Assembly (NCBI GenBank): GCA_030637025.1
Contig: DAOVVV010000021.1
Span: forward strand, 1-48,712
Reading direction: 5' to 3'
Origin: JAGLHV01 sp023143305 [NCBI: Clostridia bacterium]
GTDB lineage: Bacteria > CBDUZB01 > JAGLHV01
Length of the DNA: 48,712 nt
Below are positions 25,969 through 39,431 of the stretch, piece by piece. The translations under genes were made by a program, and so were the position numbers. Below the pieces are notes generated by a model. The model saw only the letters and a list, made by a program, of their open reading frames with translations, was not told where the DNA came from and made no database searches. Position 1 is the first letter of the stretch, and every line of letters begins with the position of its first letter.

Positions 25969-28380
25969 TTATTTCACACTCGTTTTTAATTTGTTCAAAT
26001 TGTAAATCGCTGTTTTATCCTGGGGATTTAAATGCAAAATATTTTTCCAATAAACAATTGCTCTTTCATTTTCTTTAATTTGCATATAAAAAAAAGCTAA
26101 ATTTCTATGCGCTATTATATAATCCGGTTTTAATCTTATTGCTTTTTTATAATACTCCTCCGCCATTTTAAACTCCTTTTCCATAAAATATATATTGGCC
26201 AAATTCATATAACAATCCGCACGAAAATGATTGGTAAAATTTATGCCTTTTTCCTTCAGTGCTGTTCGTAAAATTTCTTTTGCTTCCTCATATTTACCTA
26301 ATTGATAATAACATCCGGCAATTTTAATATAAATAGGACTAAAAACAGGATCCAATGCTTGTGCCTTTTTAAAATCATCCAGGGCTTCTTTATAATATAA
26401 TTGTGCTTCTTCTTTTTTCCCCTCTTTATCAGCCCGGTTAGCCAAATAAAAATAAACTTTTCCTTCAAAAAGATGCACCTGAACATAATTAGGAGCAAAT
26501 TTTTTAACTTGCGCATATTTTTCCAATGCTTTATCCATGTCTCCGGGAAATTTTCTATCTCTATAAACATTTCCCATAAAGTAATGAGTCATAATATGAG
26601 AAGGATTAAATCTCCTTACTTTTTCGTATTCTTTTAATGCTTCATCCCAAATCTTTCTTTTAGAATAAGCAATGGCTCTGTTGTGGTATAAATCAGCAAG
26701 AAATAGACGAGAAAAAAACCCATACGGATAAAAAGGGAAAATCAAATACAACCCCACAAATACCACAGCTATTTGGCACAATCGTTTCCTGATTAGTATG
26801 CCTTTTGAAAAATGACATGTGTTTTCATCCAAAACAGCCGTTTCTTTTTTTGCTTTCAAAATTATATTAGCCGCTAATCCTAAAAACAGCCAGAAAAAAA
26901 ATCCGGAGGAAACAAAACGCATATTTACGCACATAAGATTATGGACCAACAACCCAAACAAACCCGATAATATTCCGATTAAATAATATTCATCCTTAGC
27001 TAAATCATCGGACAGTTTTTTATCAGTATTTTCCCGGCTTAAAGCCAATTGCTTAATTTTTCTTATCCCTGTCGAAAAAAAAGCAAACAACATCCAAAGA
27101 AAAATAATCAATCCTACAATTCCCTGGTCATACCATATTTCCAAAAATTCATTTTCCGGATGATCTGTTTCTGTATTATGTTTCCCTTCAATATGAAATA
27201 TTTCAGATCGCCGGTATGCCGGATATGTTATTTTAAACGTTCCCAATCCGGAACCCAAAACAGGATGCTGCTTAATCATTTGAATAGTGGATGCCCAGGT
27301 AAAAAGCCTAAACCGTAAAGAATCAATTCTCTTTCTACTATAATAGGTTACTCCGAATACTGCCAGAATATTAATAACAATTACTCCGGCTATTAAAACC
27401 TTCTTCAGCTTAATTTTCAATCGCAACCCTATAACCGATAAAATAACACAAGCCATACTGGCTGCAGCAAAACCTACCCAGGAAGCTTTTGTTACCGCTA
27501 ATATAATACTGAGCGTATTCATTAAAAAAATAATTAAATATTTATTTTTTTTAGTTCTTAAAAACTCCATAAAAATTAAAGGACTTACTAAAACCAAAAA
27601 AGCAGCAAAAAAATTAGGATTACCGAATGTTGAAAAAATACGATAACCAAAAGCATTTCTCCACACAAAAGGATCTAAATGTGGTTCCATTAAAAATTTA
27701 AGAACAATTTTCCTGACTGATACAATTAGAGAGAGGGTACTTTTATTAAAATATTGTAAAAACCCATATAATACAGCCAAAAAGGCAGCAAAAATAATCC
27801 AGCGTATTACTTTATCAATATTTGCTTCTTTTCTGTCTTTATAAAGTAAAGTACCTATACCTGTTATACATAAAAAAACTATCCCTGCTTTAATCATTGA
27901 TACATTTAAAGCCATTCCAACGGAAAAAATGGCCTTATTAAAAATAGTTAATACAAGAAAAATAGCTATCATTACAGGCCAAAAAAATAATTTTATTGAT
28001 TCCTTTCTATCAGCTTCATAAGCTATAACCAGAAAAATGCCTGTATATAATATTCTTTTGATTAATTCGTCCAAACTGGTAAATTTAAAATGGGAAAGAC
28101 TGTAAGATAAAAGAGCACTAAAAAGAAAACATATTACAGGAATAGTTAAATAATTTAAAAAAGGAAAGGAATAGGGGAAGTCATTTCCGGAAGAATGCAT
28201 CTCTATTATCTTTATCAGCCACAATGAAAAAAATATAATTCCCCCAAACTGCAGAAGAGTAATCTTTATCTGACAGGAATCATATGTTTTCAAATAAAAA
28301 GATAAAACTATTAGAAAAGCCAGCATCGGCAAACAAAAAGATATTAATTTATTGATTACTTTGATTAATTTAGTATTCAT
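25969..28380 (-). CDS. O-antigen ligase-like membrane protein with TPR tail (paralog 1)
   Basis: 803 residues with the same layout as the next gene: multi-span N-terminal part with STFGNPNFFAAFLVLVSP and HPENEFLEIWYDQGIVGLI, then a TPR region from about residue 570 (repeats such as ALKEYEKVRRFNPSH and AEEYYKKAIRLKPDY). It is probably a surface glycan ligase or polymerase. The two adjacent genes share motif order and look like a tandem duplication that has since diverged. No clear ribosome-binding site is seen before its ATG. Confidence 0.82.
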   Translation of the reverse strand: MNTKLIKVINKLISFCLPMLAFLIVLSFYLKTYDSCQIKITLLQFGGIIFFSLWLIKIIEMHSSGNDFPYSFPFLNYLTIPVICFLFSALLSYSLSHFKFTSLDELIKRILYTGIFLVIAYEADRKESIKLFFWPVMIAIFLVLTIFNKAIFSVGMALNVSMIKAGIVFLCITGIGTLLYKDRKEANIDKVIRWIIFAAFLAVLYGFLQYFNKSTLSLIVSVRKIVLKFLMEPHLDPFVWRNAFGYRIFSTFGNPNFFAAFLVLVSPLIFMEFLRTKKNKYLIIFLMNTLSIILAVTKASWVGFAAASMACVILSVIGLRLKIKLKKVLIAGVIVINILAVFGVTYYSRKRIDSLRFRLFTWASTIQMIKQHPVLGSGLGTFKITYPAYRRSEIFHIEGKHNTETDHPENEFLEIWYDQGIVGLIIFLWMLFAFFSTGIRKIKQLALSRENTDKKLSDDLAKDEYYLIGILSGLFGLLVHNLMCVNMRFVSSGFFFWLFLGLAANIILKAKKETAVLDENTCHFSKGILIRKRLCQIAVVFVGLYLIFPFYPYGFFSRLFLADLYHNRAIAYSKRKIWDEALKEYEKVRRFNPSHIMTHYFMGNVYRDRKFPGDMDKALEKYAQVKKFAPNYVQVHLFEGKVYFYLANRADKEGKKEEAQLYYKEALDDFKKAQALDPVFSPIYIKIAGCYYQLGKYEEAKEILRTALKEKGINFTNHFRADCYMNLANIYFMEKEFKMAEEYYKKAIRLKPDYIIAHRNLAFFYMQIKENERAIVYWKNILHLNPQDKTAIYNLNKLKTSVK

Positions 28381-28472
28381 AACTAATTTATTACGATATT
28401 AAAAAACATTATTTTTTAAATTTACTTTTGCTCATCATAATCTTTTTCTATTTTTTATGCTAAAGAAAAATC

Positions 28473-28516
28473 AACGCGAACTATTATATCTTCCACAAAA
28501 GATATATATTCGCGTT
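28473..28516 (-). terminator. Terminator after the tRNA pair
   Basis: On the minus strand AACGCGAA (28516-28509) pairs with TTCGCGTT (28480-28473), with an inner TATATATC...GATATA stem, followed by GATTTTTC. It lies just downstream of tRNA-Thr. Confidence 0.7.
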
Positions 28517-28534
28517 CTAAAAGGACCTTAATAA

Positions 28535-28606
28535 AGCCGGGGGAGAGATTCGAACTCTTGACCTGAGCTTTACGAAAGCCCTGCTCTACCACTGAGCTAC
28601 CCCGGC
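28535..28606 (-). tRNA. tRNA-Thr (CGT)
   Basis: Cloverleaf read on the minus strand: acceptor GCCGGGG pairs with CCCCGGC, D arm GCTC...GAGC, anticodon stem GGGCT/AGCTC with loop TTCGTAA (anticodon CGT), and T arm with TTCGAAT. The 3' end reads CCCCGGC-T without an encoded CCA, so CCA must be added after transcription. Confidence 0.93.
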
Positions 28607-28681
28607 ATAAAATATGATACCAAACAAATATCTGCCCCAGCTACATTGGTAAGTTTTTTTTGATTTTAACCATACACATCA

Positions 28682-28757
28682 TGGTGCCGCGGGACGGAAT
28701 CGAACCGCCGACGCAGGGATTTTCAGTCCCTCGCTCCACCGACTGAGCTACCGCGGC
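28682..28757 (-). tRNA. tRNA-Phe (GAA)
   Basis: Acceptor GCCGCGG pairs with CCGCGGC; D arm GCTC...GAGC; anticodon stem AGGGA/TCCCT with loop CTGAAAA (anticodon GAA); T arm GGCGG-TTCGATT-CCGTC. Unlike its neighbour the gene encodes the terminal ACCA. Confidence 0.95.
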
Positions 28758-28764
28758 ACCTTTG

Positions 28765-28836
28765 ATTATACCGTTAACATTGCTTTTTATTAAACTTTAT
28801 GAGTAATATCCTAACAAAATTGTTTTATTTTGTCAA
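28765..28836 (-). promoter_or_regulatory. tRNA operon promoters
   Basis: Two candidates lie upstream of tRNA-Phe on the minus strand. The near one is TTAATA (28793-28788), 17 nt, TATAAT (28770-28765), placing the start next to the tRNA 5' end. The far one is TTGACA (28836-28831), 17 nt, TAGGAT (28813-28808). Confidence 0.65.
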
Positions 28837-28923
28837 TTTAAAATTCCCTTTTTTTTATTACATTAATGAACTCCCCTGCAGCAAATATCAAAGGTTTATC
28901 CCCCCTAACTTTTGCGCAGCAAT

Positions 28924-29033
28924 CTGCAGGGACTTAAACACTCGACCCTTCGCTCCCTACGGTCTCTCAGGATCAATTCGACTACAGAATTTTTTTCAGC
29001 TACGCTGACAAAAACTCTAAGTCTCATTGAGAT
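28924..29033. repeat. Dispersed hairpin repeat C, copy 2
   Basis: Matches 15031-15146, sharing GATCAATTCGACTACAGA and GACAAAAACTCTAAGTCTC. The tip of its hairpin reads CAGCTACGCTG (28997-29007), the exact reverse complement of the tip in copy 1. It fills the gap between hldD and the tRNA promoters. Confidence 0.8.
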
Positions 29034-29053
29034 TAATTGTTCCTATCGTGAAT

Positions 29054-29965
29054 TTATTTATTCAGAAGATAAGAACAATAATCTTTTATCCCCTCTTCTA
29101 TGTTGTATTTAGCTTTAAATCCCAAACGATTCTCAGCCATAAAGGTATCTGCCTGAGTCTCATCCTGACAAAAATTATAAGGATTATCAAAATATTCACA
29201 TTTCCGATTTAGTCCCAAATTATTATTTAAAATTTTAACAACTTGGTTAAAAGAAGTTGCCGTACCTGTACCAACATTTACAATGCAACTTTCCTCCGAT
29301 TTTATCCCTTTTAAATTTGCTTCATTTAAATCTTTTACATAAATAAAATCCCTTTTCTGTTCCCCATGTTTAAAAATTCTCGGATTTTTCCCTGCTTTCA
29401 TTTGTTGAAAAAGCTGATAAATCATACTTGCTGATTTACCTTTATATTCTTCTCCCGGACCATAAACATTAAAATACCTTAGTCCTACAATTATTATATT
29501 TTTATTTTCTATTTCTTTTTTTGCTAAATCATCCATCATTTTTTTGGAAAGAGCATAGGCATTCAACGGTTCCGGGGTCTGATCTTCCTGCATCGGACTT
29601 TTTCCGCGACCATAAGTTCCGGCCGAAGAAGCATAAACTAATTTCGCCCCCTTCACTTTAGCAAAATTTAATACATTTTTAAATCCGTCAACGTTCATCC
29701 CAATCATTTCCCGGTCATCACTAAAAGTAGTATCGGTAATTGAAGCCAAGTGAACAATAACATCAAAGTGCTTATTAATAAATTTCCTGTTTAAATCCAA
29801 AGTAGAAATATCCTCCTTAATTATCTCTCCTTTGAAATGCCCTAAATTCTTAATATTCCCGGACAAGAAACTATCAATCACAGTTATTTCATACTCCGAA
29901 TTTTTCAAACTCAATACTAAATTAGAACCAATAAATCCACCACCACCGGTAACTAAAATTTTCAT
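29054..29965 (-). CDS. hldD: ADP-L-glycero-D-manno-heptose 6-epimerase
   Basis: A 303-residue cytoplasmic SDR enzyme making the ADP-L,D-heptose used in lipopolysaccharide core. NAD-binding TGGGGFIGSN (6-15), catalytic Y137 and K141 (YALSK), and the subgroup signature LRYFNVYGPGEEYKGKSAS (key NVYGPGE) plus HGEQKRDFIYVKDL fit HldD rather than a UDP-glucose epimerase. A GDP- or UDP-sugar epimerase remains a lesser alternative. It supports a heptose-containing LPS and fits with the ligase-like genes nearby. Confidence 0.85.
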   Translation of the reverse strand: MKILVTGGGGFIGSNLVLSLKNSEYEITVIDSFLSGNIKNLGHFKGEIIKEDISTLDLNRKFINKHFDVIVHLASITDTTFSDDREMIGMNVDGFKNVLNFAKVKGAKLVYASSAGTYGRGKSPMQEDQTPEPLNAYALSKKMMDDLAKKEIENKNIIIVGLRYFNVYGPGEEYKGKSASMIYQLFQQMKAGKNPRIFKHGEQKRDFIYVKDLNEANLKGIKSEESCIVNVGTGTATSFNQVVKILNNNLGLNRKCEYFDNPYNFCQDETQADTFMAENRLGFKAKYNIEEGIKDYCSYLLNK

Positions 29966-30045
29966 AACCTTAACGCCTCCCCATCTCTTTAAATAATATC
30001 GAAAGATTTACTCCCGACAAATAAAGTTCAACCCCCTGCTCCTCA

Positions 30046-30786
30046 CTATTTTAATTTTGGTCCAAGAGGATATTTTCCACAATTAAACTTTTCTCCTTCG
30101 GGACAATAACCTAAACTTTCACACTTTGCTCCTGCCCGTTCAAAAACACAGGGAACCTTTTCTTTCGTTATTTTCAACATTCTATTAGCCAGGTTGCGCA
30201 ATTCCCATTGTGTACGATTACAACATCTGACCTTAAAAAAATGTAATAATTCTCTGCAATTCATCGTAATCACAATTTTAGTTTCCACAGCCATAGGAAG
30301 TAAAAAACGGGCATCCTGATTTGCCTGTTCTTTTATAATTCCTTTCGCCTCAAACAACTCAATTAGCCGTTTATAATCTTCCTGACAAGTGTGAATTGAT
30401 TTTTCAAATATCTTTAAAAGTTCCGGATCATTTTTAATAGAAGAAGGAATGATATAATCAAAATCTGTCGCCCGAACATATCGTTGACTTTGCTGAGAAT
30501 AGGAAGCTAAACGATGCCTTACCAACTGATGGCTGCAGGCACGGGATATTCCTTCTACTGCAAAAGAAAAACTCACATGTTCCAGAGGACTTTCGTGCCC
30601 GGATTTAATTATCTTTTTTATAAAATCTTCTTTTTTTTTGTCTCCGCCAATATTTTTTTCATCCTTTTTACAAAAAACATCAGCAGCAAATTTATTTGAA
30701 TAACATTGCCTGCAGGACGAATAAATCAAATTAACCGCGTCATTGGTCATTGAAATAAATTTTACCTTTAAATTTTTTTGACCCAT
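30046..30786 (-). CDS. thyX: Flavin-dependent thymidylate synthase
   Basis: 246 residues. The ThyX signature RHRLASYSQQSQR is at 90-102 and an upstream ESPLEHVSFSF is typical. It methylates dUMP using methylene-tetrahydrofolate and FAD. The last ~25 residues add a cysteine-rich tail (CESLGYCPEGEKFNCG), where cysteines could bind a metal; this is not part of the core family. It has its own promoter and lies 80 bp upstream of hldD. Confidence 0.94.
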   Translation of the reverse strand: MGQKNLKVKFISMTNDAVNLIYSSCRQCYSNKFAADVFCKKDEKNIGGDKKKEDFIKKIIKSGHESPLEHVSFSFAVEGISRACSHQLVRHRLASYSQQSQRYVRATDFDYIIPSSIKNDPELLKIFEKSIHTCQEDYKRLIELFEAKGIIKEQANQDARFLLPMAVETKIVITMNCRELLHFFKVRCCNRTQWELRNLANRMLKITKEKVPCVFERAGAKCESLGYCPEGEKFNCGKYPLGPKLK

Positions 30787-30856
30787 TTTTCTATTTTTTC
30801 CTTAAAAATTATATGCCGTTATTCCGCCGAAAACAGTACTTCTCTCCGGAGAGGAA

Positions 30857-30885
30857 ATTATGCCATAATTAATAATAAATGTCAA
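30857..30885 (-). promoter_or_regulatory. Promoter of thyX
   Basis: TTGACA (30885-30880), 17-nt spacer, CATAAT (30862-30857). The transcript start would be followed by a small TCTCCGGAGA hairpin. Confidence 0.78.
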
Positions 30886-30927
30886 ACATTTTAAAAAATC
30901 AATCACTTTTGAGAAAACCCTTTATTT

Positions 30928-31013
30928 TTGATAAAAATCAATCTGATAAATTACAATAATGCTGCTTAAATAATCAGGATAAACTATTCCTGAAGAATAC
31001 CTTATTGTTTAAA
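30928..31013 (+). promoter_or_regulatory. Duplicated promoter/leader, truncated copy
   Basis: TTGATA (30928-30933), 18-nt spacer, TACAAT (30952-30957), then a leader with TTAAATAATCAGGATAAA. It parallels 32407-32492 in front of the DUF116 gene, down to the TTGTTTAAAAA that opens that gene. Here the reading frame is lost and a terminator follows at 31034. It looks like a duplicated promoter whose gene has been deleted, or a source of a short RNA. The rest of the 30787-31230 gap has the thyX promoter and nothing else I can name. Confidence 0.6.
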
Positions 31014-31033
31014 AACAAATTAGCACCCAATAT

Positions 31034-31079
31034 AAAAGGAGTTTTTCCTTTTTGGATAAAAAAGTAAAACTCCTTTTTA
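31034..31079 (+). terminator. Strong terminator after the orphan leader
   Basis: AAAAGGAGTTTT (31034-31045) pairs with AAAACTCCTTTT (31066-31077), ending in a T-run. It closes a short plus-strand transcription unit started at 30928. Confidence 0.75.
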
Positions 31080-31230
31080 TTGCTTTTGTTTAAACGTTAC
31101 CAAATATTATTCTATTTTTTTAACTTACTTAGGTAGGTTTAAATTCATCTTGTAGATACAAAGCCCGGATATCTTAACTTTTTTCATCTTTCTCCTTCCA
31201 AAATATAGTAATGTCAAAAATCATTGACCT

Positions 31231-32223
31231 TTAATTAAAAACTGTATGCGCTTTCTTTAAAATCTTATCGGAAATGTTTATTCCCAACAGTTCAGAAACC
31301 CTAATATTTATTGATAAAAGTGTTTTTCTGGGAAAAGTAACAGGTAAAGAACTCGCATTTTTCCCCTTTAATATTTCACAGGATAATTCTCCTGACTGCC
31401 GGCCAATATCTTCATAATCACAATCTAAGGCAAACAATGCACCATTCTTAACCAGATGCCGGGCATACCCCATAACAGGAATTCTATTTCTCAAAGTAAA
31501 AGATAATATATACAATAAAGATTGTTTATTAATTAATTTTGTATCAAGAACCATCCACAATATGTCAATATCATTAATTAATCCGTTAATAGCATCGGGT
31601 ACTTGCTTTGGATAAATGACCGTAACTTTTTTTAATTCTATTTCGTTTTCTTTAGCAAATAAAACAGCTTTTTTAATTATTTTTTCTGTATTAAACGGAT
31701 TATAAACTACTCCCACTTCCTTCACATCAGTAACAATTGATTTCATTAGGCTTAATTGAACATCGGGAATAATATCCATTGCACTACCGGTAAAATTACT
31801 TCCCGGATTTTTTATGTTTTGTACAAAACCCTTTCCTACCGGATCTAATACCATGGAAAACACTACCGGAATATTCTTTATTTCTGCATCCCATACTTTT
31901 TGCGTACTTCGAGTACCTATAGTTAATATCAAATCTGTTTTTTCTTCTCTAATCTTCTCAATGGTACCGTCTATTCTTTTGTCTAGTAAATAATAATTTA
32001 AAACTAAATTTTCCCCTTCTTTATAGCCCTCTTTTTCCAATGCTTCCAAAAATCCTTTCAAGGCATCATTATAGGGTCTAATATTTAAACTCTTAATAAT
32101 ACAAATATCTACTATCTCCTCGGCAATTGTCTCTTTTATTTGCCCCAAAAACATTATTATTGTTAAAAACAATATTAGTTTATATTTAAGAGATAGTCTT
32201 TTATTTTTTTTTTTATTTTTCAT
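31231..32223 (-). CDS. ABC-type solute-binding protein (PF04392 type), copy 1
   Basis: 330 residues: a secretion signal (about 15-35, no lipobox), then the two-lobe fold of the ABC_sub_bind family (TrpX-like). Recognisable parts are IIKSLNIRPYNDALKGFLEAL, DLILTIGTRSTQKV, IPVVFSMVLDPVGKGF, VKEVGVVYNPFNTE and IPVMGYARHLVKNGALFAL. It is a periplasmic ligand binder; relatives bind amino acids or act as sensors. No permease or ATPase gene is adjacent. A close paralog is at 35770-36765. The AAGG before its ATG is unusually close. Confidence 0.82.
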   Translation of the reverse strand: MKNKKKNKRLSLKYKLILFLTIIMFLGQIKETIAEEIVDICIIKSLNIRPYNDALKGFLEALEKEGYKEGENLVLNYYLLDKRIDGTIEKIREEKTDLILTIGTRSTQKVWDAEIKNIPVVFSMVLDPVGKGFVQNIKNPGSNFTGSAMDIIPDVQLSLMKSIVTDVKEVGVVYNPFNTEKIIKKAVLFAKENEIELKKVTVIYPKQVPDAINGLINDIDILWMVLDTKLINKQSLLYILSFTLRNRIPVMGYARHLVKNGALFALDCDYEDIGRQSGELSCEILKGKNASSLPVTFPRKTLLSINIRVSELLGINISDKILKKAHTVFN

Positions 32224-32406
32224 CCTTAATTTCTTTCTTTCTTACTATTCATTAAAAACTCAGCCTTAATATATCTATTTCTTACCTGTTTAACTTATCA
32301 TAAAAAATACTTCCCTGTCAATGATATTATCTATCAGCTTTATATTTTTGATGATGTTAAATATTTCGCGTCCTTTTATCTATTTTAAATAGAGACTTTT
32401 TTATTC

Positions 32407-32436
32407 TTGACAAAAATTAGTCTGATAATTTACAAT
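32407..32436 (+). promoter_or_regulatory. Promoter of the DUF116 gene
   Basis: TTGACA (32407-32412), 18-nt spacer, TACAAT (32431-32436). The same spacing and surrounding sequence occur at 30928-30957, and both are followed by TTAAATAATCAGGATAAA or a one-base variant. Confidence 0.75.
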
Positions 32437-32484
32437 GAAACTGTTTAAATAATCAGGATAAAAAATTTCCAGAGGAATATCGCC

Positions 32485-33045
32485 TTGTTTAAAAAAATAA
32501 TCAGTTACTTTAAGAAAAAACGAAATCACCAGAAAAGAGCCGCTAAATTTACTGAATTAATCAATATTCTAAAGGGAACCGATCCCGAAAAAGATAATCT
32601 TAAGGAATTTTATAAAACTTCTATTCTTCAAAAAAACAAAGAAAATATTCCAAAATTTTCAGCAATTCCTTTTTCGGAAAGAATAATCCTGTTACCTCAG
32701 TGTCTTCGCAACATTGATCAATGCAAAGCTAAAGAAATCGGTATCCTGTATGAATGTCAGCATTGTGGTGCGTGCAAAATTGACTGGATTATCCAAAAAG
32801 CAAAAAATTTGGGTTACAAAGGAATTTACCTGCTCAAAGGCGGAAGTGTTATTTCAAAAATAATTGAAGAGGTTCACCCTAAAGCACTTATTGGGGTAGC
32901 CTGCTTTTATGAAGGATTAATCGGCATAACCGAATGTGAAAAACATGGCATTATCGTCCAATTCGTTCCTTTAACCAAAGATGGTTGTGTTAATACCGAC
33001 TTAAATTTAGATGTATTAAAAAACTCAATGAATTTAATTAAATAA
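32485..33045 (+). CDS. DUF116 family cysteine-rich protein
   Basis: 186 residues. The N-terminal ~65 are basic and helical. The C-terminal ~120 match DUF116: ILLPQCLRN (C73), C80, the CQHCGAC cluster (C91, C94, C97), KGGSVISKII, IGVACFYE (C140), C151 and TKDGCVNT (C168). The cysteine pattern suggests an iron-sulfur or other metal site, not proven. The start is TTG at 32485, with GAGGA about 9 nt upstream. Function is unknown. Position between two solute-binding protein genes and next to a TonB receptor suggests a shared pathway. Confidence 0.75.
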   Translation: MFKKIISYFKKKRNHQKRAAKFTELINILKGTDPEKDNLKEFYKTSILQKNKENIPKFSAIPFSERIILLPQCLRNIDQCKAKEIGILYECQHCGACKIDWIIQKAKNLGYKGIYLLKGGSVISKIIEEVHPKALIGVACFYEGLIGITECEKHGIIVQFVPLTKDGCVNTDLNLDVLKNSMNLIK

Positions 33046-33160
33046 TTCACCATATATCAAACAAACTTTAAATTTCAAAATTAATGGATGAATATTACTT
33101 TCAATATTTTGTTTTCCGTACAATAAACAAAAGTAGTTCCAAAAAATAGATGAAATATAT

Positions 33161-33191
33161 AAGGCACATCATTCATAATGATGTATGCCTT
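33161..33191. repeat. Long hairpin downstream of the DUF116 gene
   Basis: AAGGCACATCATT (33161-33173) pairs with AATGATG plus TGCCTT (33177-33191) with a 2-nt bulge. No T-run follows on either strand, so it is not a clear terminator. The rest of the 33046-33343 gap is the MITE (33209-33324). Confidence 0.55.
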
Positions 33192-33208
33192 GATACAGTC
33201 AATGCACT

Positions 33209-33324
33209 CCAAATACTTAGACTTATGCAAAATAGCTTTTTTACCCTTTTTGCCTGCCCGGTACGCCTCAGGCGGAGCGGACAGGCAAGCAGAATATTGT
33301 ATTTTGCAGAAGTCTCCAAATACT
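33209..33324. mobile_element. MITE-like element with 9-bp target duplication, copy 2
   Basis: CCAAATACT occurs at 33209-33217 and 33316-33324, directly flanking a ~98-bp element. Its ends are TAGACTTATGCAAAATA and TATTTTGCAGAAGTCT, the same as copy 1 (685-970) within one or two bases. The interior is a palindrome around GCCTCAGGCGGAGCGG. It ends 4 nt before the AAGGAGG of the next gene, so it was inserted into that gene's 5' region. Confidence 0.78.
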
Positions 33325-33343
33325 AAATAAGGAGGATTGCCTT

Positions 33344-33604
33344 ATGGCAAAAAGTATTTTAATTATTTTATTAGGAAAGAGAAAAGAATCTGCCGTTAGT
33401 GTCCAAAAGATTCTTACTCAATGGGGATGTTTGATAAAAACAAGATTGGGAATACATGATGGTGTGCTGGAAAATTGTTCGGAAAGCGGATTAATTATCC
33501 TGGAATTAGTAGGGGCTAAATCCAAAAAAGAAGAATTTACCAGAAAATTAAATCTCTTATCCGGAGTAACGGCAAAACTTGTCGAACTTTCCATCGATAA
33601 ATGA
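33344..33604 (+). CDS. Small ACT-like regulator, TM1266-type
   Basis: 86 residues with the beta-alpha-beta pattern of an ACT/NikR-C-like domain. SILIILLGKRKESAVSVQKIL, then IKTRLGIHDGVLENCSESGLIILELVGA and a closing GVTAKLVEL resemble the TM1266 family (annotated as iron-only hydrogenase system regulator). It has no DNA-binding part. Such proteins may sense a small ligand or metal. AAGGAGG lies 9 nt before the ATG. A MITE sits immediately upstream and a terminator follows at 33655. Confidence 0.65.
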   Translation: MAKSILIILLGKRKESAVSVQKILTQWGCLIKTRLGIHDGVLENCSESGLIILELVGAKSKKEEFTRKLNLLSGVTAKLVELSIDK

Positions 33605-33654
33605 AAAAAAACTCTTAAAACAAAACCCTGCCAATATTTTTTTGAAAAGAAATT

Positions 33655-33705
33655 AAGGGAGTTTCTACCTTTTTGGCAAAAACTCCCTTTTATTCCTTCT
33701 TTTTA
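33655..33705 (+). terminator. Terminator after the TM1266-like gene
   Basis: AAGGGAGTTT (33655-33664) pairs with AAACTCCCTT (33680-33689), followed by a T-rich tract. It lies between convergent genes. Confidence 0.7.
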
Positions 33706-33739
33706 TTTAACCGATATTATTCTGTTTTTTTTAATCCCT

Positions 33740-35716
33740 TTAAAACTTATAATTTACATTCCCGGTGATTTTTCTGCCTATTTCTTCACCAAAAACTAAA
33801 CCAGGAATATTTCCCGGGGTATATTGATAATGTTCATCCTTAAAAAGATTAAAGGCGGCCACAGCTATCTCTAAATTATCGTTTATCTGATAACCCAAAC
33901 GAACATTGACTAAAGTATAGGAATCAAGTTTAAGATTCCCCACCCACAATTCAACCTCATCTACATAATTGACACTTACATTTAAAGACAACCCATTTTT
34001 TAATTTAGCCCTTAACTCCGCATTAACTTTATTTAAAGGGGATTCTTTTCTGCGTTGATCTTTTTCGTCCTCATCAGAAATAGGATCATCTTCCAAATCA
34101 ATAATTTCCTGATAAGAATAATTAACCATTCCTGTTAACCCTTCAGCAATTAATACCTCTACGCTTATTTCCCCCCCTCTTCCCTCGGTTTCTCCGGTAT
34201 TCAAATAAGTATAGTATGGACCCACAGGTGAACCTGGATAAAGTTCATTAGGAACAGACGTTAATTTAGCCCGGGCATTAATAAAATCTTTATATTGGTT
34301 ATAAAATAAATCCACTCTTGCCTTTACTCTATCCACCAGTAAGGTTTGATAACCAATTTCATAAGTAGTAATTTTTTCCGGGGTTAAATCTTCATTTCCT
34401 ACTGTAGGTATCTCTACAATCATAGTGGGAGGAAAAGGAAGAGGAAGCCCGGTTTCAACCGTTACCTCTGTACTGGTTTCTGTATAGGATTCAAAAAAAG
34501 TAGGAGATCTAAACGCTGTAGCGGCAGATATCCTAAAAGTGTGATTTTTAACCGGAGAATAAATTACACTCGTTCTGGGAGTGGTATGATCTCCAAAAAG
34601 AGGATGATAATCATATCTCCCTCCTATAACTATGGACAGAGAATCTATTGGTTTAAACTCTTCCTGTAAATAAAAATCCCAGGTACCCTGTTCTTGTTTT
34701 CTATCTTTCAGTGTATCACTTTCTACATTGCACTGCCTGAAATTTCCTCCCAAAACAATAGAATGTTTTTCCAATAAATCTAATGCTTGCTGTATTTCTA
34801 TTTCATAAGTATCACTTTCCTGTTTATCTGTCAGAAGAGTAGTTAAGTCTAATATCTCTCCATCTACTCCCTCCCAATAAGCAAGCACTTTTAAATCTTT
34901 AAAATTATAATCCGCCTGAAAATAATCTGTTGTTCCCTTTTTTTCCATAGGAATATGACCCGCTGCCAGTTCTCCCTCCGTTTCTCCATGTCCGCCGGAA
35001 AAAGTTAATTTAGAATTATCATTAAATTTATAGCCTACGGCTACATTTCCCCGTGGTATTCCGTCTAAACTTTCTTTATCCTTTATCCACTGGTCTGTTT
35101 GATACCAACCTAAAGATACTTTATAGTCTAATTTATCTATTACTCCTGCCTGAATCACTGATCCTAAGGAAGTATTATATTCTCCTGCAGTAAAGGAAAT
35201 GGATGTTCCTTTTAATTTTTCAGGTGATTTAGTAATAATATGAATTACTCCGGAATAAGCATTAGCTCCGTACAAAGCCGAACCGGGGCCCCTGATTATT
35301 TCAATCCTTTCAATCTCTTCCAATGAAACAGTTAATGACTCCCAAAAAACATTTCCCAGGAGTTTCAAATAAATAGGCCGACCGTCAACCATTACTAACA
35401 TTTTGTTATAAAGCCGGTGATTAAGCCCACGCGCAGCAACATTAAAATCCGAAGCAGTAACCGCCATAACATCCATACCGGGTACCATTCTCAAAAGGTC
35501 AGGAACATTCGTTGCCCCCGATTGGTGAATATCTTCTGCAGTAATTACAGTGATAGCAGAAGGAGCTTCACTTATTTTCTGCTCATACCGGGAGGCAGTA
35601 ACAACCATCTCCTCCTCGCTAAATAAAATAAGCTCCGATGCAAAAACTAAACTACTGCTAACAGCCAGCATTACTACCAGAAAACCCACTCTTAATACGG
35701 AAAAAACATTTTTCAT
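33740..35716 (-). CDS. TonB-dependent outer-membrane receptor, ligand unknown
   Basis: 658 residues. Signal peptide about 1-27 (cut after VFASE-like region), a TonB box-like EEMVVTASRYEQ, and a plug with IERIEIIRGPGSALYGANAYSGVIHIITK (key RGPGSALYG). The barrel ends in KF. AAAGGAGG precedes the ATG. It is distinct from the BtuB-like receptor and no riboswitch is seen upstream. The preceding gene (54 bp) is a solute-binding protein, so the two may be co-transcribed and share a ligand. Siderophore, corrinoid or another metal complex are all possible. Confidence 0.88.
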   Translation of the reverse strand: MKNVFSVLRVGFLVVMLAVSSSLVFASELILFSEEEMVVTASRYEQKISEAPSAITVITAEDIHQSGATNVPDLLRMVPGMDVMAVTASDFNVAARGLNHRLYNKMLVMVDGRPIYLKLLGNVFWESLTVSLEEIERIEIIRGPGSALYGANAYSGVIHIITKSPEKLKGTSISFTAGEYNTSLGSVIQAGVIDKLDYKVSLGWYQTDQWIKDKESLDGIPRGNVAVGYKFNDNSKLTFSGGHGETEGELAAGHIPMEKKGTTDYFQADYNFKDLKVLAYWEGVDGEILDLTTLLTDKQESDTYEIEIQQALDLLEKHSIVLGGNFRQCNVESDTLKDRKQEQGTWDFYLQEEFKPIDSLSIVIGGRYDYHPLFGDHTTPRTSVIYSPVKNHTFRISAATAFRSPTFFESYTETSTEVTVETGLPLPFPPTMIVEIPTVGNEDLTPEKITTYEIGYQTLLVDRVKARVDLFYNQYKDFINARAKLTSVPNELYPGSPVGPYYTYLNTGETEGRGGEISVEVLIAEGLTGMVNYSYQEIIDLEDDPISDEDEKDQRRKESPLNKVNAELRAKLKNGLSLNVSVNYVDEVELWVGNLKLDSYTLVNVRLGYQINDNLEIAVAAFNLFKDEHYQYTPGNIPGLVFGEEIGRKITGNVNYKF

Positions 35717-35769
35717 TCTTTTTCCTCCTTTTTTAAAATATATAAAACTTTTGTTTTTTTAAATCCTAA

Positions 35770-36765
35770 CTAATTAAAAACCTTATAAGCTTCTTTTAAG
35801 ATCTGAACAGGAATCTCTATTCCTACATGTTTGGCAACCCTAACATTCACCGATAAAAGGGCTTTCCTGGGGAAAGTAACCGGTAACGTCCCGGGATTTT
35901 CCCCATTTATTATTTTCCAGGATAATTCCCCTCCCTGACGGCCAATATCTTCATAATCACAACTTAAAGCCAATAGAGCCCCCTTTTGTACAAGATGAGC
36001 TGCATACCCCATAACAGGAACTTTGTTCTTTAAAGTAAGCGATAATATATACTGCAAAGACTGCTCACTATCCACAGTACTATCCGGAATTAACCATAAC
36101 ATATTAATTTCGCTGATTAACCCGGTAAGAACATTCGGAACATCTTTGGAAGAAAGAACACTAACCGCTTTTAATTCCATTCTGTTTTTTTTGGCAAAAG
36201 AATCAGCATTTTTAATCATTTCGCTTGATTCAAGAGGATTATACATTACTCCGATATTTTCTATCCCGGGAATAACTGATTTCATTGCCTGCCAATGCAG
36301 ATAAACAGGAATTTTCATTGTCGTTCCGGTAAAATTATTTCCTGAATTTTGATTACTTTTCACAAAACCATTTTTCCGGGGATCTAACACCATCAGAAAT
36401 ATTACCGGAACATCCCTTATTTCCGCCTGGTGTATTTTCTTCGTTGCCTCAGTTCCAACAGTTAATATTAAATCCGGTTTTTCCTCTTCAATCTTCTTAA
36501 TGATTGCTTTTTCTTCTTTTCTTTTACCCTTTAACAAATAATAATTTAAAATTAAATTTTTACCTTCGGTATACCCTTTTTCTTCCAACGACTCAAAAAA
36601 CCCTTTTAATGCACTATTATATGGTTTAATATTCAAACTCTTAATAACATAAATATTAACTACTTTACCAGCGGATATTGCTCCTGTTTTTCCTATAAAT
36701 AGTATTCCAATACATAATAAAAATATTACTGTCTTTTTATATTTAAAACTATTTTTTCTCTCCAT
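35770..36765 (-). CDS. ABC-type solute-binding protein (PF04392 type), copy 2
   Basis: 331 residues, clearly paralogous to the protein at 31231-32223 along its whole length (IKSLNIKPYNSALKGFFESL, DLILTVGTEATKKI, IPVQILKEAYKVFN). Secretion signal at the N-terminus (about 10-32), no lipobox. A periplasmic ligand-binding protein without a transporter partner in the window. It is the first gene of a two-gene unit with the TonB receptor. The promoter and palindrome are at 36895-36924. Confidence 0.82.
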   Translation of the reverse strand: MERKNSFKYKKTVIFLLCIGILFIGKTGAISAGKVVNIYVIKSLNIKPYNSALKGFFESLEEKGYTEGKNLILNYYLLKGKRKEEKAIIKKIEEEKPDLILTVGTEATKKIHQAEIRDVPVIFLMVLDPRKNGFVKSNQNSGNNFTGTTMKIPVYLHWQAMKSVIPGIENIGVMYNPLESSEMIKNADSFAKKNRMELKAVSVLSSKDVPNVLTGLISEINMLWLIPDSTVDSEQSLQYILSLTLKNKVPVMGYAAHLVQKGALLALSCDYEDIGRQGGELSWKIINGENPGTLPVTFPRKALLSVNVRVAKHVGIEIPVQILKEAYKVFN

Positions 36766-36894
36766 TTATTTCCCGAATTTCTCTGAATATTATTTATATA
36801 AGATTCTAATATTAATATAGGTTTATACCATTTCAAAACCATTACCGTAATTATCCGCTATTTATTTTTTATTTTAAGTCAACTTTCACGATTA

Positions 36895-36924
36895 AATGTA
36901 CTACAAGTTTAGTACCCTTGTCAA
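36895..36924 (-). promoter_or_regulatory. Promoter with operator-like palindrome for the receptor unit
   Basis: TTGACA (36924-36919), 18-nt spacer, TACATT (36900-36895). The palindrome GTACTA-N6-TAGTAC (36898-36915) fills the spacer, a classic place for a repressor. Leader to the ATG is about 130 nt. The rest of the 36766-37210 gap holds only the flippase promoter. Confidence 0.55.
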
Positions 36925-37130
36925 GAAAATTAGGTCTAAAATTTAAATTAACTTCATAAAAACATTTATCCTCTTAAATATCTCAAAAATAAATACGCTG
37001 ACTACAACCCTGTTTTAGTAAAAAAAGAAAAGCCCCCGTTCCAAAATGTATTTTCTCTCTGATAAGTTTTAACACAAAAACAAAAATTATGAACCCGATA
37101 AAATATAATAAAATTTCACTCATAGTTTAC

Positions 37131-37159
37131 TTGACAAAAAAATGTAATTTTAGTATAAA
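37131..37159 (+). promoter_or_regulatory. Promoter of the flippase gene
   Basis: TTGACA (37131-37136), 17-nt spacer, TATAAA (37154-37159), about 50 nt before the ATG. Confidence 0.75.
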
Positions 37160-37210
37160 AAGAAAAAACTTAAAGCTCGTTTTTTACATACAGGAGAAAA
37201 CAAAAAAACA

Positions 37211-38185
37211 ATGAAAAAGAGTTTCTGGATAGGATTGGTTTTTAGTTTTATTTTTCTTTACCTTACTTTTAGAAAAGTAGACTTTCAAGAAATTAAACAG
37301 GCCTTAACCATGGTTACCTTTTTATGGATTTTTCCGGCAGTTATTACTTACCTGTTTGTTTTTTTATTAAGAGCTGTTCGTTGGAAATATATTTTTTCTC
37401 CTTTAAAAAAAACTCATTATCCTTATTTATTTTCTTCCTTAATTATTGGTTATATGGCTAACAACCTTCTTCCTGTACGCATGGGCGAATTCATCCGCGC
37501 TTATCTCATAGGGAAAAAGGAACAGGTTAGTAAAAGTACCGCTCTTGCTACTCTGGTTGTAGAAAGGGTTTTTGACGGATTAACTATTTTATTTCTTCTA
37601 AGTGTAATTTCTTCTTTTTTTCCTTTTCCCTCTTGGGTTAAAAAAATAGGAATAACCTCTTTTATCTCGCTTTCTTTATTAATTGTTTTTCTATACAGTT
37701 TATTACATTGGGAACAAGCTACTATAAAAATTTTTCGCAAAATTATTTTCTTTTTCCCCCTTTCTTTAAAAGAAAAAATAACTACTCTGCTCCGTTCCTT
37801 TGTTTGCGGATTAAAAGTACTCCGCCATAAAAAAGAACTCTTTATGGTTTGTTTTCTATCTTTTATGATCTGGTTTGCTGAAGCAACTACTTTTTACCTG
37901 GTCGCTTGTGCCTTTCATTTATCTATCTCCTTTTTTGGAGCTATATTTATAATGGGTTTAATTTGTCTGGGATTAATTATCCCTTCTTCTCCCGGTTTTA
38001 TCGGAGTATATGAATATTTCAGTATTACTGCTTTACAACTATTATCCGTATCTAAAAGCCAGGCTATTCCTTATACTATAGTTATCCATAGTTTGCAATT
38101 CTCATTAATAATATGTCTTGGTTTTTTCTTCTTATGGAAGGAAAATCTTTCCTGGAAACAATTACAATCAAACCAACAATCTTGA
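37211..38185 (+). CDS. YbhN/AglD-type membrane flippase-like protein (UPF0104)
   Basis: 324 residues with about eight membrane spans and the family pattern of lysylphosphatidylglycerol synthase transmembrane domains: LRAVRWKYIFSPL (about 51-63), YMANNLLPVRMGEFIRAYLIG (key NNLLPVRMGE), VERVFDGL, and SSPGFIGVYEYFS. Relatives flip or handle lipids and lipid-linked sugars; the cargo here is unknown. AGGAGA precedes the ATG at a rather long distance. It stands alone on the plus strand. Confidence 0.82.
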   Translation: MKKSFWIGLVFSFIFLYLTFRKVDFQEIKQALTMVTFLWIFPAVITYLFVFLLRAVRWKYIFSPLKKTHYPYLFSSLIIGYMANNLLPVRMGEFIRAYLIGKKEQVSKSTALATLVVERVFDGLTILFLLSVISSFFPFPSWVKKIGITSFISLSLLIVFLYSLLHWEQATIKIFRKIIFFFPLSLKEKITTLLRSFVCGLKVLRHKKELFMVCFLSFMIWFAEATTFYLVACAFHLSISFFGAIFIMGLICLGLIIPSSPGFIGVYEYFSITALQLLSVSKSQAIPYTIVIHSLQFSLIICLGFFFLWKENLSWKQLQSNQQS

Positions 38186-38271
38186 ATAAAAAAAATAAAG
38201 ACAGTTAAAAGACAGTTGAATTGGTTTAGATTAGTTTAGATTGGTTAAAGACAAAGACAAAAACAAATAAT

Positions 38272-38331
38272 GAAGGTGAAATGTGTTTTGAACGACTTAG
38301 CAAATTTTAGCAATAATAAGCGTTAAAAAAA
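38272..38331. repeat. Dispersed repeat family B, copy 2
   Basis: AATGTGTTTTGAACGA and TAGCAAATTTTAGCAA match 6904-6963 with few changes and the same strand. It sits between the flippase gene and the bidirectional terminator, preceded by degenerate GGTTTAGATT units (38221-38246). Confidence 0.75.
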
Positions 38332-38372
38332 GAAAGATTTTTGATATAAATATTCAAAAATCTTTCTTTTAA
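38331..38372. terminator. Bidirectional terminator between flippase and pfk genes
   Basis: AGAAAGATTTTTGA (38331-38344) pairs with TCAAAAATCTTTCT (38354-38367), followed by T on the plus strand and preceded by an A-run that gives T on the minus strand. Confidence 0.78.
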
Positions 38373-38402
38373 TCTGCAACTATTTCTTTACTTTATCAAA
38401 TT

Positions 38403-39431
38403 TTATTTAAAAAACACCTGAATTAAATTCCACCATTCGTCAGTGACCGTCTTCAACTTAGAGACTGCTTCTTCCAAAGGAACACCTACTATCCGATCAC
38501 CCTGCAACGCAACCATTTGTCCGAATTTTTCCTCTGCTACCAAATCCGCTGCTTTTACCCCTACCCGTGTCCCTAATATTCTATCAAATAAAGTCGGAGA
38601 ACCTCCTCTTTGAATATGTCCAATTACCGCAACTCTGGTTTCTACTTTTATTTTTTCTTCAATTATGTTAGCAATGTCCTCCCCTACCCCTCTCTTTTTC
38701 AAAATCATATGTCCAAACGGGTCTAATTCTTCTTTAGCCCCATTTATATTAGGAATTTTTACTCCTTCTGAAACTATTACTAAAGCTGTTTTCTTTCGAC
38801 TATAATCTTTTTTTAATTGCTCACACATTTTATCTATTTCCACTTCTCTTTCCGGAATTAATACCCAATCCGCTGCTGCACCAAGCCCTACAAATAAAGC
38901 TACCCAACCTGCATGTCTGCCCATTACCTCTAAAACCATAATCCGGCGATGGGAAGCACCTGTATCCTTTAATCTCTCTGCTGCATCTACTGCTACAGTA
39001 ACAGAAGTATCAAACCCAAAAGTATAATCAGTAGCAGAAAGATCGTTATCCATAGTTTTAGGGACACCTATACAATTAATTCCTTTTTTGCCCAGTTTAT
39101 TAGCAACACCCAGGGTATCTTCTCCTCCCATAGCTACAATTGCATCCAGACCTAATTTTTTTATATTTTCCTGGCATTTTTTTACATCGCCTTCTTTTCT
39201 AAAAGGATTAGTACGTGAAGTTCCTAAAATAGTTCCACCTTTATTTACAATATCTTCCACATCCCCTATTTCCAGTAGCTCTGCCTCGCCCTCAATCAAT
39301 CCTTTCCACCCTTCCCTTATTCCCATAACCTCAAAGTTATAATCCTTCGCCCTCATCACACAACCTCGAATAGCCGGATTTAACCCAGGACAATCTCCTC
39401 CACCGGTAAGAACCCCAATCCGTTTAACCAT
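38403..39431 (-). CDS. Phosphofructokinase, predicted pyrophosphate-dependent
   Basis: A 342-residue 6-phosphofructokinase of the group III type. GGGDCPGLN (10-18), GGEDT (102-106) and PKTMDND (124-130) are visible. The aspartate D105 and lysine K125 occupy the positions that distinguish pyrophosphate users (Asp/Lys) from ATP users (Gly/Gly), so PPi is the likely phosphoryl donor. The reaction would be reversible. It lies 30 nt after the ATP-type pfkA in the same operon. Confidence 0.85.
   Translation of the reverse strand: MVKRIGVLTGGGDCPGLNPAIRGCVMRAKDYNFEVMGIREGWKGLIEGEAELLEIGDVEDIVNKGGTILGTSRTNPFRKEGDVKKCQENIKKLGLDAIVAMGGEDTLGVANKLGKKGINCIGVPKTMDNDLSATDYTFGFDTSVTVAVDAAERLKDTGASHRRIMVLEVMGRHAGWVALFVGLGAAADWVLIPEREVEIDKMCEQLKKDYSRKKTALVIVSEGVKIPNINGAKEELDPFGHMILKKRGVGEDIANIIEEKIKVETRVAVIGHIQRGGSPTLFDRILGTRVGVKAADLVAEEKFGQMVALQGDRIVGVPLEEAVSKLKTVTDEWWNLIQVFFK

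What the first reader, a model, noticed from the sequence alone, without database searches (positions are those of the whole stretch)
31231..36765. Uncharacterised uptake/sensing locus: two orphan binding proteins, TonB receptor, DUF116 and TM1266-like regulator
Two close PF04392-type binding proteins bracket a TonB receptor, a protein with eight cysteines and a small ACT-like regulator, with no permease or ATPase. The shared location suggests one ligand that is imported through the outer membrane, bound in the periplasm and sensed. A metal or metal-complex ligand would fit the cysteines and the regulator family. This is the best candidate here for an undescribed system.
Basis: inference. Interest (0 to 1): 0.65.

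Follow-up and report, generated by a model that had tools for sequence, protein, structure and literature searches.

The report
TonB receptor paired with sensory binding-protein
Two binding proteins that databases call transporter parts sit beside an outer-membrane receptor in a little-known bacterium; comparison with other bacteria suggests they belong to a widespread kind of environment-sensing module rather than to an import pump, while the other two neighbouring genes are probably bystanders.

Summary
The five genes are real. The core is a minus-strand operon, SBP2 (PF04392) then a TonB-dependent receptor. SBP1 is an older paralogue lying between thyX and DUF116 beside duplicated promoter-leader and terminator DNA. 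DUF116 and a CPF_0552-family gene (not TM1266) form a separate plus-strand unit; both are absent from all 60 Nitrospirota loci surveyed, and CPF_0552 and SBP1 are missing from a sister species' locus. The near-identical genome G001 has no PF02653 permease. In Nitrospirota the same PF04392 clade is followed directly by a histidine kinase, chemoreceptor or GGDEF protein in 50 of 60 loci and has a TonB receptor within three genes in 42 of 60; permease and ATPase in 0 of 60. Omnitrophota show the pattern more loosely. Four of the five published amino-acid-binding residues are gone (kept in 0, 0, 0 and 1 of 76). G001 carries binding-protein–chemoreceptor–CheA-like and binding-protein–kinase–regulator clusters. 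Best reading: receptor and SBP2 are the outer-membrane and periplasmic half of a receptor / binding-protein / sensor module whose sensor is encoded elsewhere. The ligand is unknown; nothing here points to a metal.

The parts
35770..36765 (-). SBP2: periplasmic binding protein, PF04392, sensory-clade pocket; first gene of the SBP2-TBDR operon
   Evidence: PF04392 154.7 bits; AlphaFold model pLDDT 89.8, closest solved structure by TM-score 6hnj, 0.89 by target length; pocket T/M/L/M/S
33740..35716 (-). TonB-dependent outer-membrane receptor, 53 nt downstream of SBP2 on the same strand
   Evidence: plug PF07715 and barrel PF00593; in a starred set of 13 SBP-linked receptors of three phyla in a quick tree
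31231..32223 (-). SBP1: PF04392 paralogue of SBP2 (54%)
   Evidence: branches outside SBP2 and its G002/G003 orthologues
36895..36924 (-). promoter-like site upstream of SBP2 (TTGACA-18-TACATT, 10/12)
   Evidence: consensus match only
32485..33045 (+). DUF116 protein, 8 conserved cysteines; neighbour, probably not part of the module
   Evidence: PF01976 115.3 bits; 0 of 60 survey loci
33344..33604 (+). CPF_0552-family small protein; neighbour, probably not part of the module
   Evidence: NF052672 99.6 bits over cut-off 85; absent from the G003 locus
32400..32495 (+). promoter and leader of DUF116 (copy 2)
   Evidence: TTGACA-18-TACAAT 11/12 at 32407-32436; repeat of copy 1
30921..31015 (+). 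duplicated promoter and leader (copy 1), joined to the thyX-side spacer, no DUF116 gene behind it
   Evidence: promoter-like 10/12 at 30928
33646..33698 (.). hairpin (terminator-like) between the CPF_0552 gene and the TBDR 3' end
   Evidence: (I11)
31034..31077 (.). duplicate of that hairpin beside the SBP1 3' end
   Evidence: I7; alignment score 92 against at most 60 in 200 shuffles

Best explanation
SBP2 and the TonB receptor are the outer two layers of a trans-envelope sensing module, not of an ABC importer. Proposed steps: (1) the receptor takes a ligand across the outer membrane with TonB energy (inferred from family); (2) SBP2 binds it in the periplasm in a pocket that no longer has the amino-acid anchors of TrpX-type proteins (pocket change shown by sequence, binding inferred); (3) the loaded SBP2 docks on the extracytoplasmic cache domain of an inner-membrane sensor (histidine kinase or chemoreceptor) and alters signalling (inferred from the clade's neighbourhood and from SBP-dependent receptors in general). 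Here the sensor is not encoded beside the operon and would have to act in trans. SBP1 is an older paralogue left by duplication of the block; it may add a second ligand or be on its way out. DUF116 and CPF_0552 are neighbours with their own promoter.
For: No PF02653 permease in G001. Nitrospirota: 93 of 198 genomes have the clade at E<=1e-30; of 60 loci examined, 50 have a sensor directly downstream on the same strand, against 6 of 210 genes lying four or more genes away; TonB receptor within three genes in 42; permease 0, TrpZ-type ATPase 0. Omnitrophota: 12 of 20 regions with a directly downstream kinase or chemoreceptor and 7 of 20 with a TonB receptor within three genes, counted by eye from the rows; L023 shows SBP-MCP-SBP-TBDR-HK. 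Same genus: SBP-MCP-CheA-like and SBP-HK-RR clusters (Pfam). Of five published ligand residues, four are kept in 0, 0, 0 and 1 of 76 clade members but in 9, 7, 8 and 8 of 9 permease/ATPase-linked ones. The window's receptor groups with SBP-linked receptors. SBP2-TBDR adjacency is conserved in G002 and G003. G001 has further cache-type sensors on contigs without a PF04392 match: C201 (sCache_4, cut by the contig end), C369 (cache-HAMP-SpoIIE) and C359 (HAMP kinase). ExbB and ExbD are present in G001.
Against: No sensor is adjacent to SBP2-TBDR in the window, G002 or G003. Ligand and docking are untested. SBP-TBDR groups without a sensor directly beside them also occur elsewhere (L112, L158, L159), so the pair may have a use of its own. 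The survey took mainly the best-scoring hits, so the rates hold for this clade's core, not for all PF04392. 18 of 60 Nitrospirota loci have no TonB receptor within three genes, and 9 of the 59 with a downstream gene have no recognised sensor there.
Confidence: 0.62

Rival explanations
1. An uptake system: the TonB receptor imports a nutrient, SBP2 buffers it in the periplasm and hands it to an inner-membrane importer of another class encoded elsewhere.
For: SBP-TBDR groups without any sensor directly beside them in this genus, L112, L158 and L159.
Against: Permease and ATPase within three genes in 0 of 60 Nitrospirota loci. In 20 Omnitrophota regions one has both, the weakest hit of the list, and one more (L164) has an ATPase-like gene three genes away without a recognised permease. 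PF02653 is absent from G001. Other importer classes were not searched.
Confidence: 0.2
2. The first reader's five-gene system for a metal or metal complex, with DUF116 and the small protein as cytoplasmic handling and sensing parts.
For: DUF116 has eight invariant Cys and stays near the operon in all three genus members (in G002 inferred across two contigs that do not join).
Against: DUF116 and CPF_0552 in 0 of 60 survey loci; CPF_0552 absent from the G003 locus; opposite strand with own promoter match; DUF116 is as constantly next to thyX.
Confidence: 0.08
3. A classical aromatic amino-acid ABC importer (TrpXYZ type) that has lost or scattered its permease.
For: PF04392 membership; closest solved structures bind Tyr, Phe and Trp (PMC6816091, section 8 read).
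Against: Four of five ligand residues missing in SBP1 and SBP2; no PF02653 in G001.
Confidence: 0.03

Closest known systems
TrpX / CD0873 / VC_1101 (PF04392 binding proteins of aromatic amino-acid ABC importers)
   Same: Fold and family; 24-27% identity to the solved members
   Different: No permease or ATPase beside it; ligand residues replaced by Met/Leu/Ser/Thr; in the clade the partner genes are TonB receptor and sensors
SBP-dependent sensors and chemoreceptors such as LuxP-LuxQ and XylFII-LytS
   Same: Binding protein encoded with a sensor that has an extracytoplasmic domain; LuxP-LuxQ and XylFII-LytS entries are among the structure hits; PMC9602780 (passages read) describes the general mechanism
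   Different: Different binding-protein family, and a TonB receptor is part of the neighbourhood; in the window itself the sensor is not adjacent
TOL_0244 family TonB-dependent receptor (NF053590)
   Same: Best NCBIfam match of the window receptor, 264 bits
   Different: Below that model's cut-off of 645 bits

Membership tests
PF04392 ABC_sub_bind | profile match and type I periplasmic-binding fold | tested here: met
   157 and 154.7 bits over 25.9; SBP2 model against 6hnj TM 0.89 by target
TrpX-type amino-acid ABC importer | linked BPD_transp_2 permease and ATPase | tested here: not met
   none among the eight window proteins scanned; PF02653 0 matches in G001, control rings in 12 of 14 genomes
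TrpX-type amino-acid ABC importer | ligand residues T108, A127, T129, D152, N233 (numbering of S. suis TrpX, PMC9382623 section 13) | tested here: not met
   SBP1 T/M/L/M/T, SBP2 T/M/L/M/S; mapped by residue spacing and a MAFFT alignment
SBP-dependent sensor module | SBP gene next to a sensor gene | tested here: not met
   met for the clade (50 of 60) and for other SBPs of the genus, not for SBP1 or SBP2 themselves
SBP-dependent sensor module | binding protein docks on the sensor domain | not testable with these tools
   needs a binding assay
TonB-dependent receptor | plug and beta-barrel domains | tested here: met
   PF07715 and PF00593
TonB-dependent receptor | TonB-ExbB-ExbD energy system in the genome | tested here: inconclusive
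   ExbD (104.9 bits) and ExbB (103.3 bits) in G001 C411; the adjacent TonB-like ORF is cut by the contig end and has no Pfam match
TM1266 hydrogenase regulator (TIGR03959, PF21699) | score over the curated cut-off | tested here: not met
   23.5 vs 60.8 bits and 18.6 vs 27 bits; the G003 gene beside hydrogenase and HydF scores 104.2
CPF_0552 family (NF052672) | score over the curated cut-off | tested here: met
   99.6 vs 85 bits
DUF116 (PF01976) | score over the curated cut-off | tested here: met
   115.3 vs 25 bits
geopeptide RiPP system (TIGR04280 maturase) | maturase over cut-off in the genome | tested here: not met
   0 of G001-G004 over 400 bits

The most novel reading that the evidence does not exclude
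A large PF04392 clade has left ABC transport altogether and become the periplasmic relay of a TonB-gated signalling system spanning both membranes (TonB receptor, binding protein, cache-domain sensor), with sensor-less satellites such as the window's pair acting in trans; in a sub-branch the ligand is a radical-SAM-modified peptide made from the same locus (geopeptide maturase between or beside receptor and binding protein), that is, peptide signalling through a TonB receptor.
Probability: 0.2. Interest if true: 0.8.

Novelty: new variant of a known kind. Interest (0 to 1): 0.45.

Why it matters
These proteins match a family named 'ABC transporter substrate-binding protein', which hides a widespread clade whose gene neighbours and pocket say 'sensor'. 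If true, TonB receptors feed dedicated two-component and chemotaxis sensors through a binding protein, and the ligand can be sought directly by purifying the binding protein.

Tried and rejected
Five-gene unit: rejected on strand, on absence of DUF116 and CPF_0552 from 60 survey loci, and on G003. TM1266 hydrogenase regulator: below both cut-offs; G003 has a true TM1266 (104.2 bits) between an [FeFe] hydrogenase and HydF, at another place. 18-mer leader as a regulon mark: the only exact copies in G001-G003 are the two of this locus; with up to two mismatches 6, 4 and 7 sites in G001, G002 and G003 against 1, 4 and 0 for the reversed control; G001 and G003 thus exceed the control, and I did not look at what lies beside those sites. 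Recent tandem duplication: leader and terminator copies fit it, but SBP1 + SBP2 as one clade is rejected (p-AU 0.0007 without the two fragments, 0.0016 with one of them), so SBP1 is older or the flanks were homogenised later; unresolved. A scar of the lost receptor's start beside SBP1 was not significant (score 44, shuffles up to 53). Geopeptide as the window's ligand: no maturase over cut-off in G001-G004, and five of the six receptors in the separate 'rSAM' clade come from rSAM loci, not the window's branch. 'SBP-linked' as a tree-wide label is not significantly clustered (4 changes, shuffled mean 4.8); two of the five 'not linked' receptors (G001 C107, C15) lie at contig ends, so their label is unsure. 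DUF116 fold: model too poor (pLDDT 34), not searched. CPF_0552 and DUF116 gave no credible solved relative (best E 0.37 and 0.23). Rfam found only two tRNAs in 28000-38500. The plasmid search gave remote relatives only, under 32% identity in the 40 of 123 records listed. Literature: searches found none; 42, 64, 86 and 87 listed 1, 1, 14 and 1 papers, of which I saw titles and abstract starts, none on this combination; one search listed 5 papers with PF04392, of which passages of PMC9602780 were read; others (DUF116; geopeptide) gave nothing useful; the review PMC8050422 is not held.

Full report
WHAT IS THERE. The locus reads, from left: thyX(-), SBP1(-), DUF116(+), CPF_0552-family gene(+), TonB receptor(-), SBP2(-), flippase-like gene(+). 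SBP2 and the receptor are 53 nt apart on one strand, with a promoter-like site before SBP2, so they look like one operon. DUF116 has its own promoter match (11 of 12), and a hairpin stands between the two convergent units. The promoter scan is only a consensus scan: 38 promoter-like sites against 27.8 +/- 5.0 in shuffles, 8 terminator-like against 4.0 +/- 1.9. The window's own assembly is not held. G001 has one contig 99.8% identical to 29010-35589; it has the length (6580) of JAGLHV010000075, a MAG contig titled only 'bacterium isolate RS_2_16', found at 100% protein identity. Only three genomes of the phylum are held, all of one genus.

SISTER SPECIES. G003 C110 has flippase / SBP2-TBDR / DUF116 / thyX with neither SBP1 nor CPF_0552. 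G002 has SBP2-TBDR beside the flippase gene on one contig, and thyX-DUF116-CPF_0552 followed by another SBP fragment on a second contig. G002 (C290) and G003 (C121) each also have a second SBP-TBDR pair, and G003 has one split over several frames (C50). So SBP2-TBDR is the constant pair, DUF116 a constant neighbour, SBP1 and CPF_0552 variable.

HOW SBP1 CAME THERE. The promoter-leader of DUF116 is repeated near SBP1's 3' end, as are the hairpin and the flank of the receptor's 3' end (score 92, at most 60 in 200 shuffles). Copy 1 is the one joined to a thyX-side spacer like that of G002 and G003. This fits duplication of a block and loss of its middle. But the protein tree puts SBP1 outside SBP2 and its G002 and G003 orthologues and rejects SBP1+SBP2 as sisters (p-AU 0.0007). 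The duplication is therefore older than the genus' split, or the flanks were homogenised later.

NOT AN ABC IMPORTER. PF02653, the permease family of TrpY-type partners, has no match in G001 while it rings in 12 of 14 control genomes. A paper on S. suis TrpX (PMC9382623, section 13 read) names T108, A127, T129, D152 and N233 as ligand-binding residues shared by the homologues compared, with one exception in S. pyogenes; the CD0873 paper (PMC6816091, section 8 and passages read) reports Tyr, Phe and Trp bound in the three solved structures. Mapped by spacing onto an alignment of 76 clade members and 9 permease- or ATPase-linked ones, A127, T129, D152 and N233 are kept in 0, 0, 0 and 1 of 76 (the one is L023's receptor-linked protein), but in 9, 7, 8 and 8 of 9; T108 is kept in 16 of 76 and 9 of 9. 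At the A127, T129 and D152 positions the clade is mostly Met or Leu. SBP2's model (pLDDT 89.8) matches the open form of CD0873 best by TM-score.

THE CLADE'S NEIGHBOURHOOD. 93 of 198 Nitrospirota genomes have a clade member at E<=1e-30. I fetched one locus from each of 60 of these 93 genomes, mostly the best-scoring, and labelled genes with small local profiles. A kinase, chemoreceptor or GGDEF protein is directly downstream on the same strand in 50 (59 have a downstream gene at all), against 6 of 210 genes four or more genes away. A TonB receptor is within three genes in 42, on the upstream side in 39 of these (in L097, L110 and L143 on the other strand); both features in 35. TonB receptor genes make up 50 of 344 genes within three positions and 0 of 210 further away. 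Radical-SAM maturase within three genes 7, permease 0, ATPase 0; DUF116 and CPF_0552 anywhere in the stretch 0. The kinase and maturase profiles were built partly from four of these loci (L088, L107; L104, L118), so detection there is favoured. In Omnitrophota 15 of 237 genomes have the clade. In 20 regions fetched (24 of the 27 matches), counted by eye, 12 have a directly downstream kinase or chemoreceptor, 7 a TonB receptor within three genes, one (L172, the weakest hit) a permease and ATPase, and one (L164) an ATPase-like gene three genes away. In L159 two SBPs bracket a TonB receptor on one strand, an independent likeness of the window. For comparison, of eight loci of remote relatives, mostly Bacillota, six show permease and ATPase, one ATPase only, and in one no SBP ORF was found.

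SENSORS IN THE SAME GENUS. G001 C26, G002 C334 and G003 C94 have SBP-chemoreceptor-CheA-like genes; G001 C235 and G003 C74 SBP-kinase-response regulator. Pfam was run on the G001 chemoreceptor and kinase (HAMP, and sCache_4 just or well over its cut-off), on the G002 CheA (Hpt, CheW, HATPase) and on the G001 regulator. A profile of the sensor region has 10, 17 and 14 matches in G001, G002 and G003, several of them in one protein or on HAMP alone. In G001, C201 (sCache_4, cut by the contig end, E 2.7e-31), C369 (cache-HAMP-SpoIIE) and C359 (HAMP kinase; its cache match is below cut-off) lie on contigs with no PF04392 match. They are candidate partners for SBP1 and SBP2; this is inference.

RECEPTORS. 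In a quick tree of 34 receptors the window's receptor sits in a starred set of 13, all SBP-linked, from three phyla; a separate clade of six holds five receptors of radical-SAM loci and L097. The label as a whole is not significantly clustered, several long branches meet, and the 'not linked' set is only five.

NOVELTY. SBP-dependent receptors are known (PMC9602780, passages read). I found no paper joining PF04392, a TonB receptor and a sensor in the held library, which lacks most subscription journals and a main review. I therefore call it a new variant of a known kind.

Noticed in passing
L104, L110, L118, L134, L137, L141, L143 (Nitrospirota); L024 and L025: A geopeptide-type radical SAM maturase (TIGR04280 545-567 bits in the three tested, L104, L118 and L024, cut-off 400; the others by a local profile) lies between or beside TonB receptor and SBP; in L118, L137, L141 and L143 small ORFs with a CC motif near their end lie next to it.
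   Followed up: partly
L123, L129: CHAT/TPR protein and DUF928 protein three and two genes before the SBP-kinase pair (Pfam for L123 only; L129 by size); genes of similar size in L125 and L135.
   Followed up: no
L162 (G352) and G161 C90: Two PF04392 matches in one long open frame (640 and 1271 aa), apparent fusions.
   Followed up: no
L042 (G003 C50:1-2900): A further SBP-TBDR pair split over several frames, probably a decaying pair or an assembly error.
   Followed up: no
L046 (G003 C183): True TM1266 gene (TIGR03959 104 bits) between an [FeFe] hydrogenase and HydF; the window's CPF_0552 protein is a different family.
   Followed up: yes
L159 (G379 C20): Two PF04392 genes bracketing a TonB receptor on one strand, without a recognised sensor directly beside them.
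   Followed up: partly
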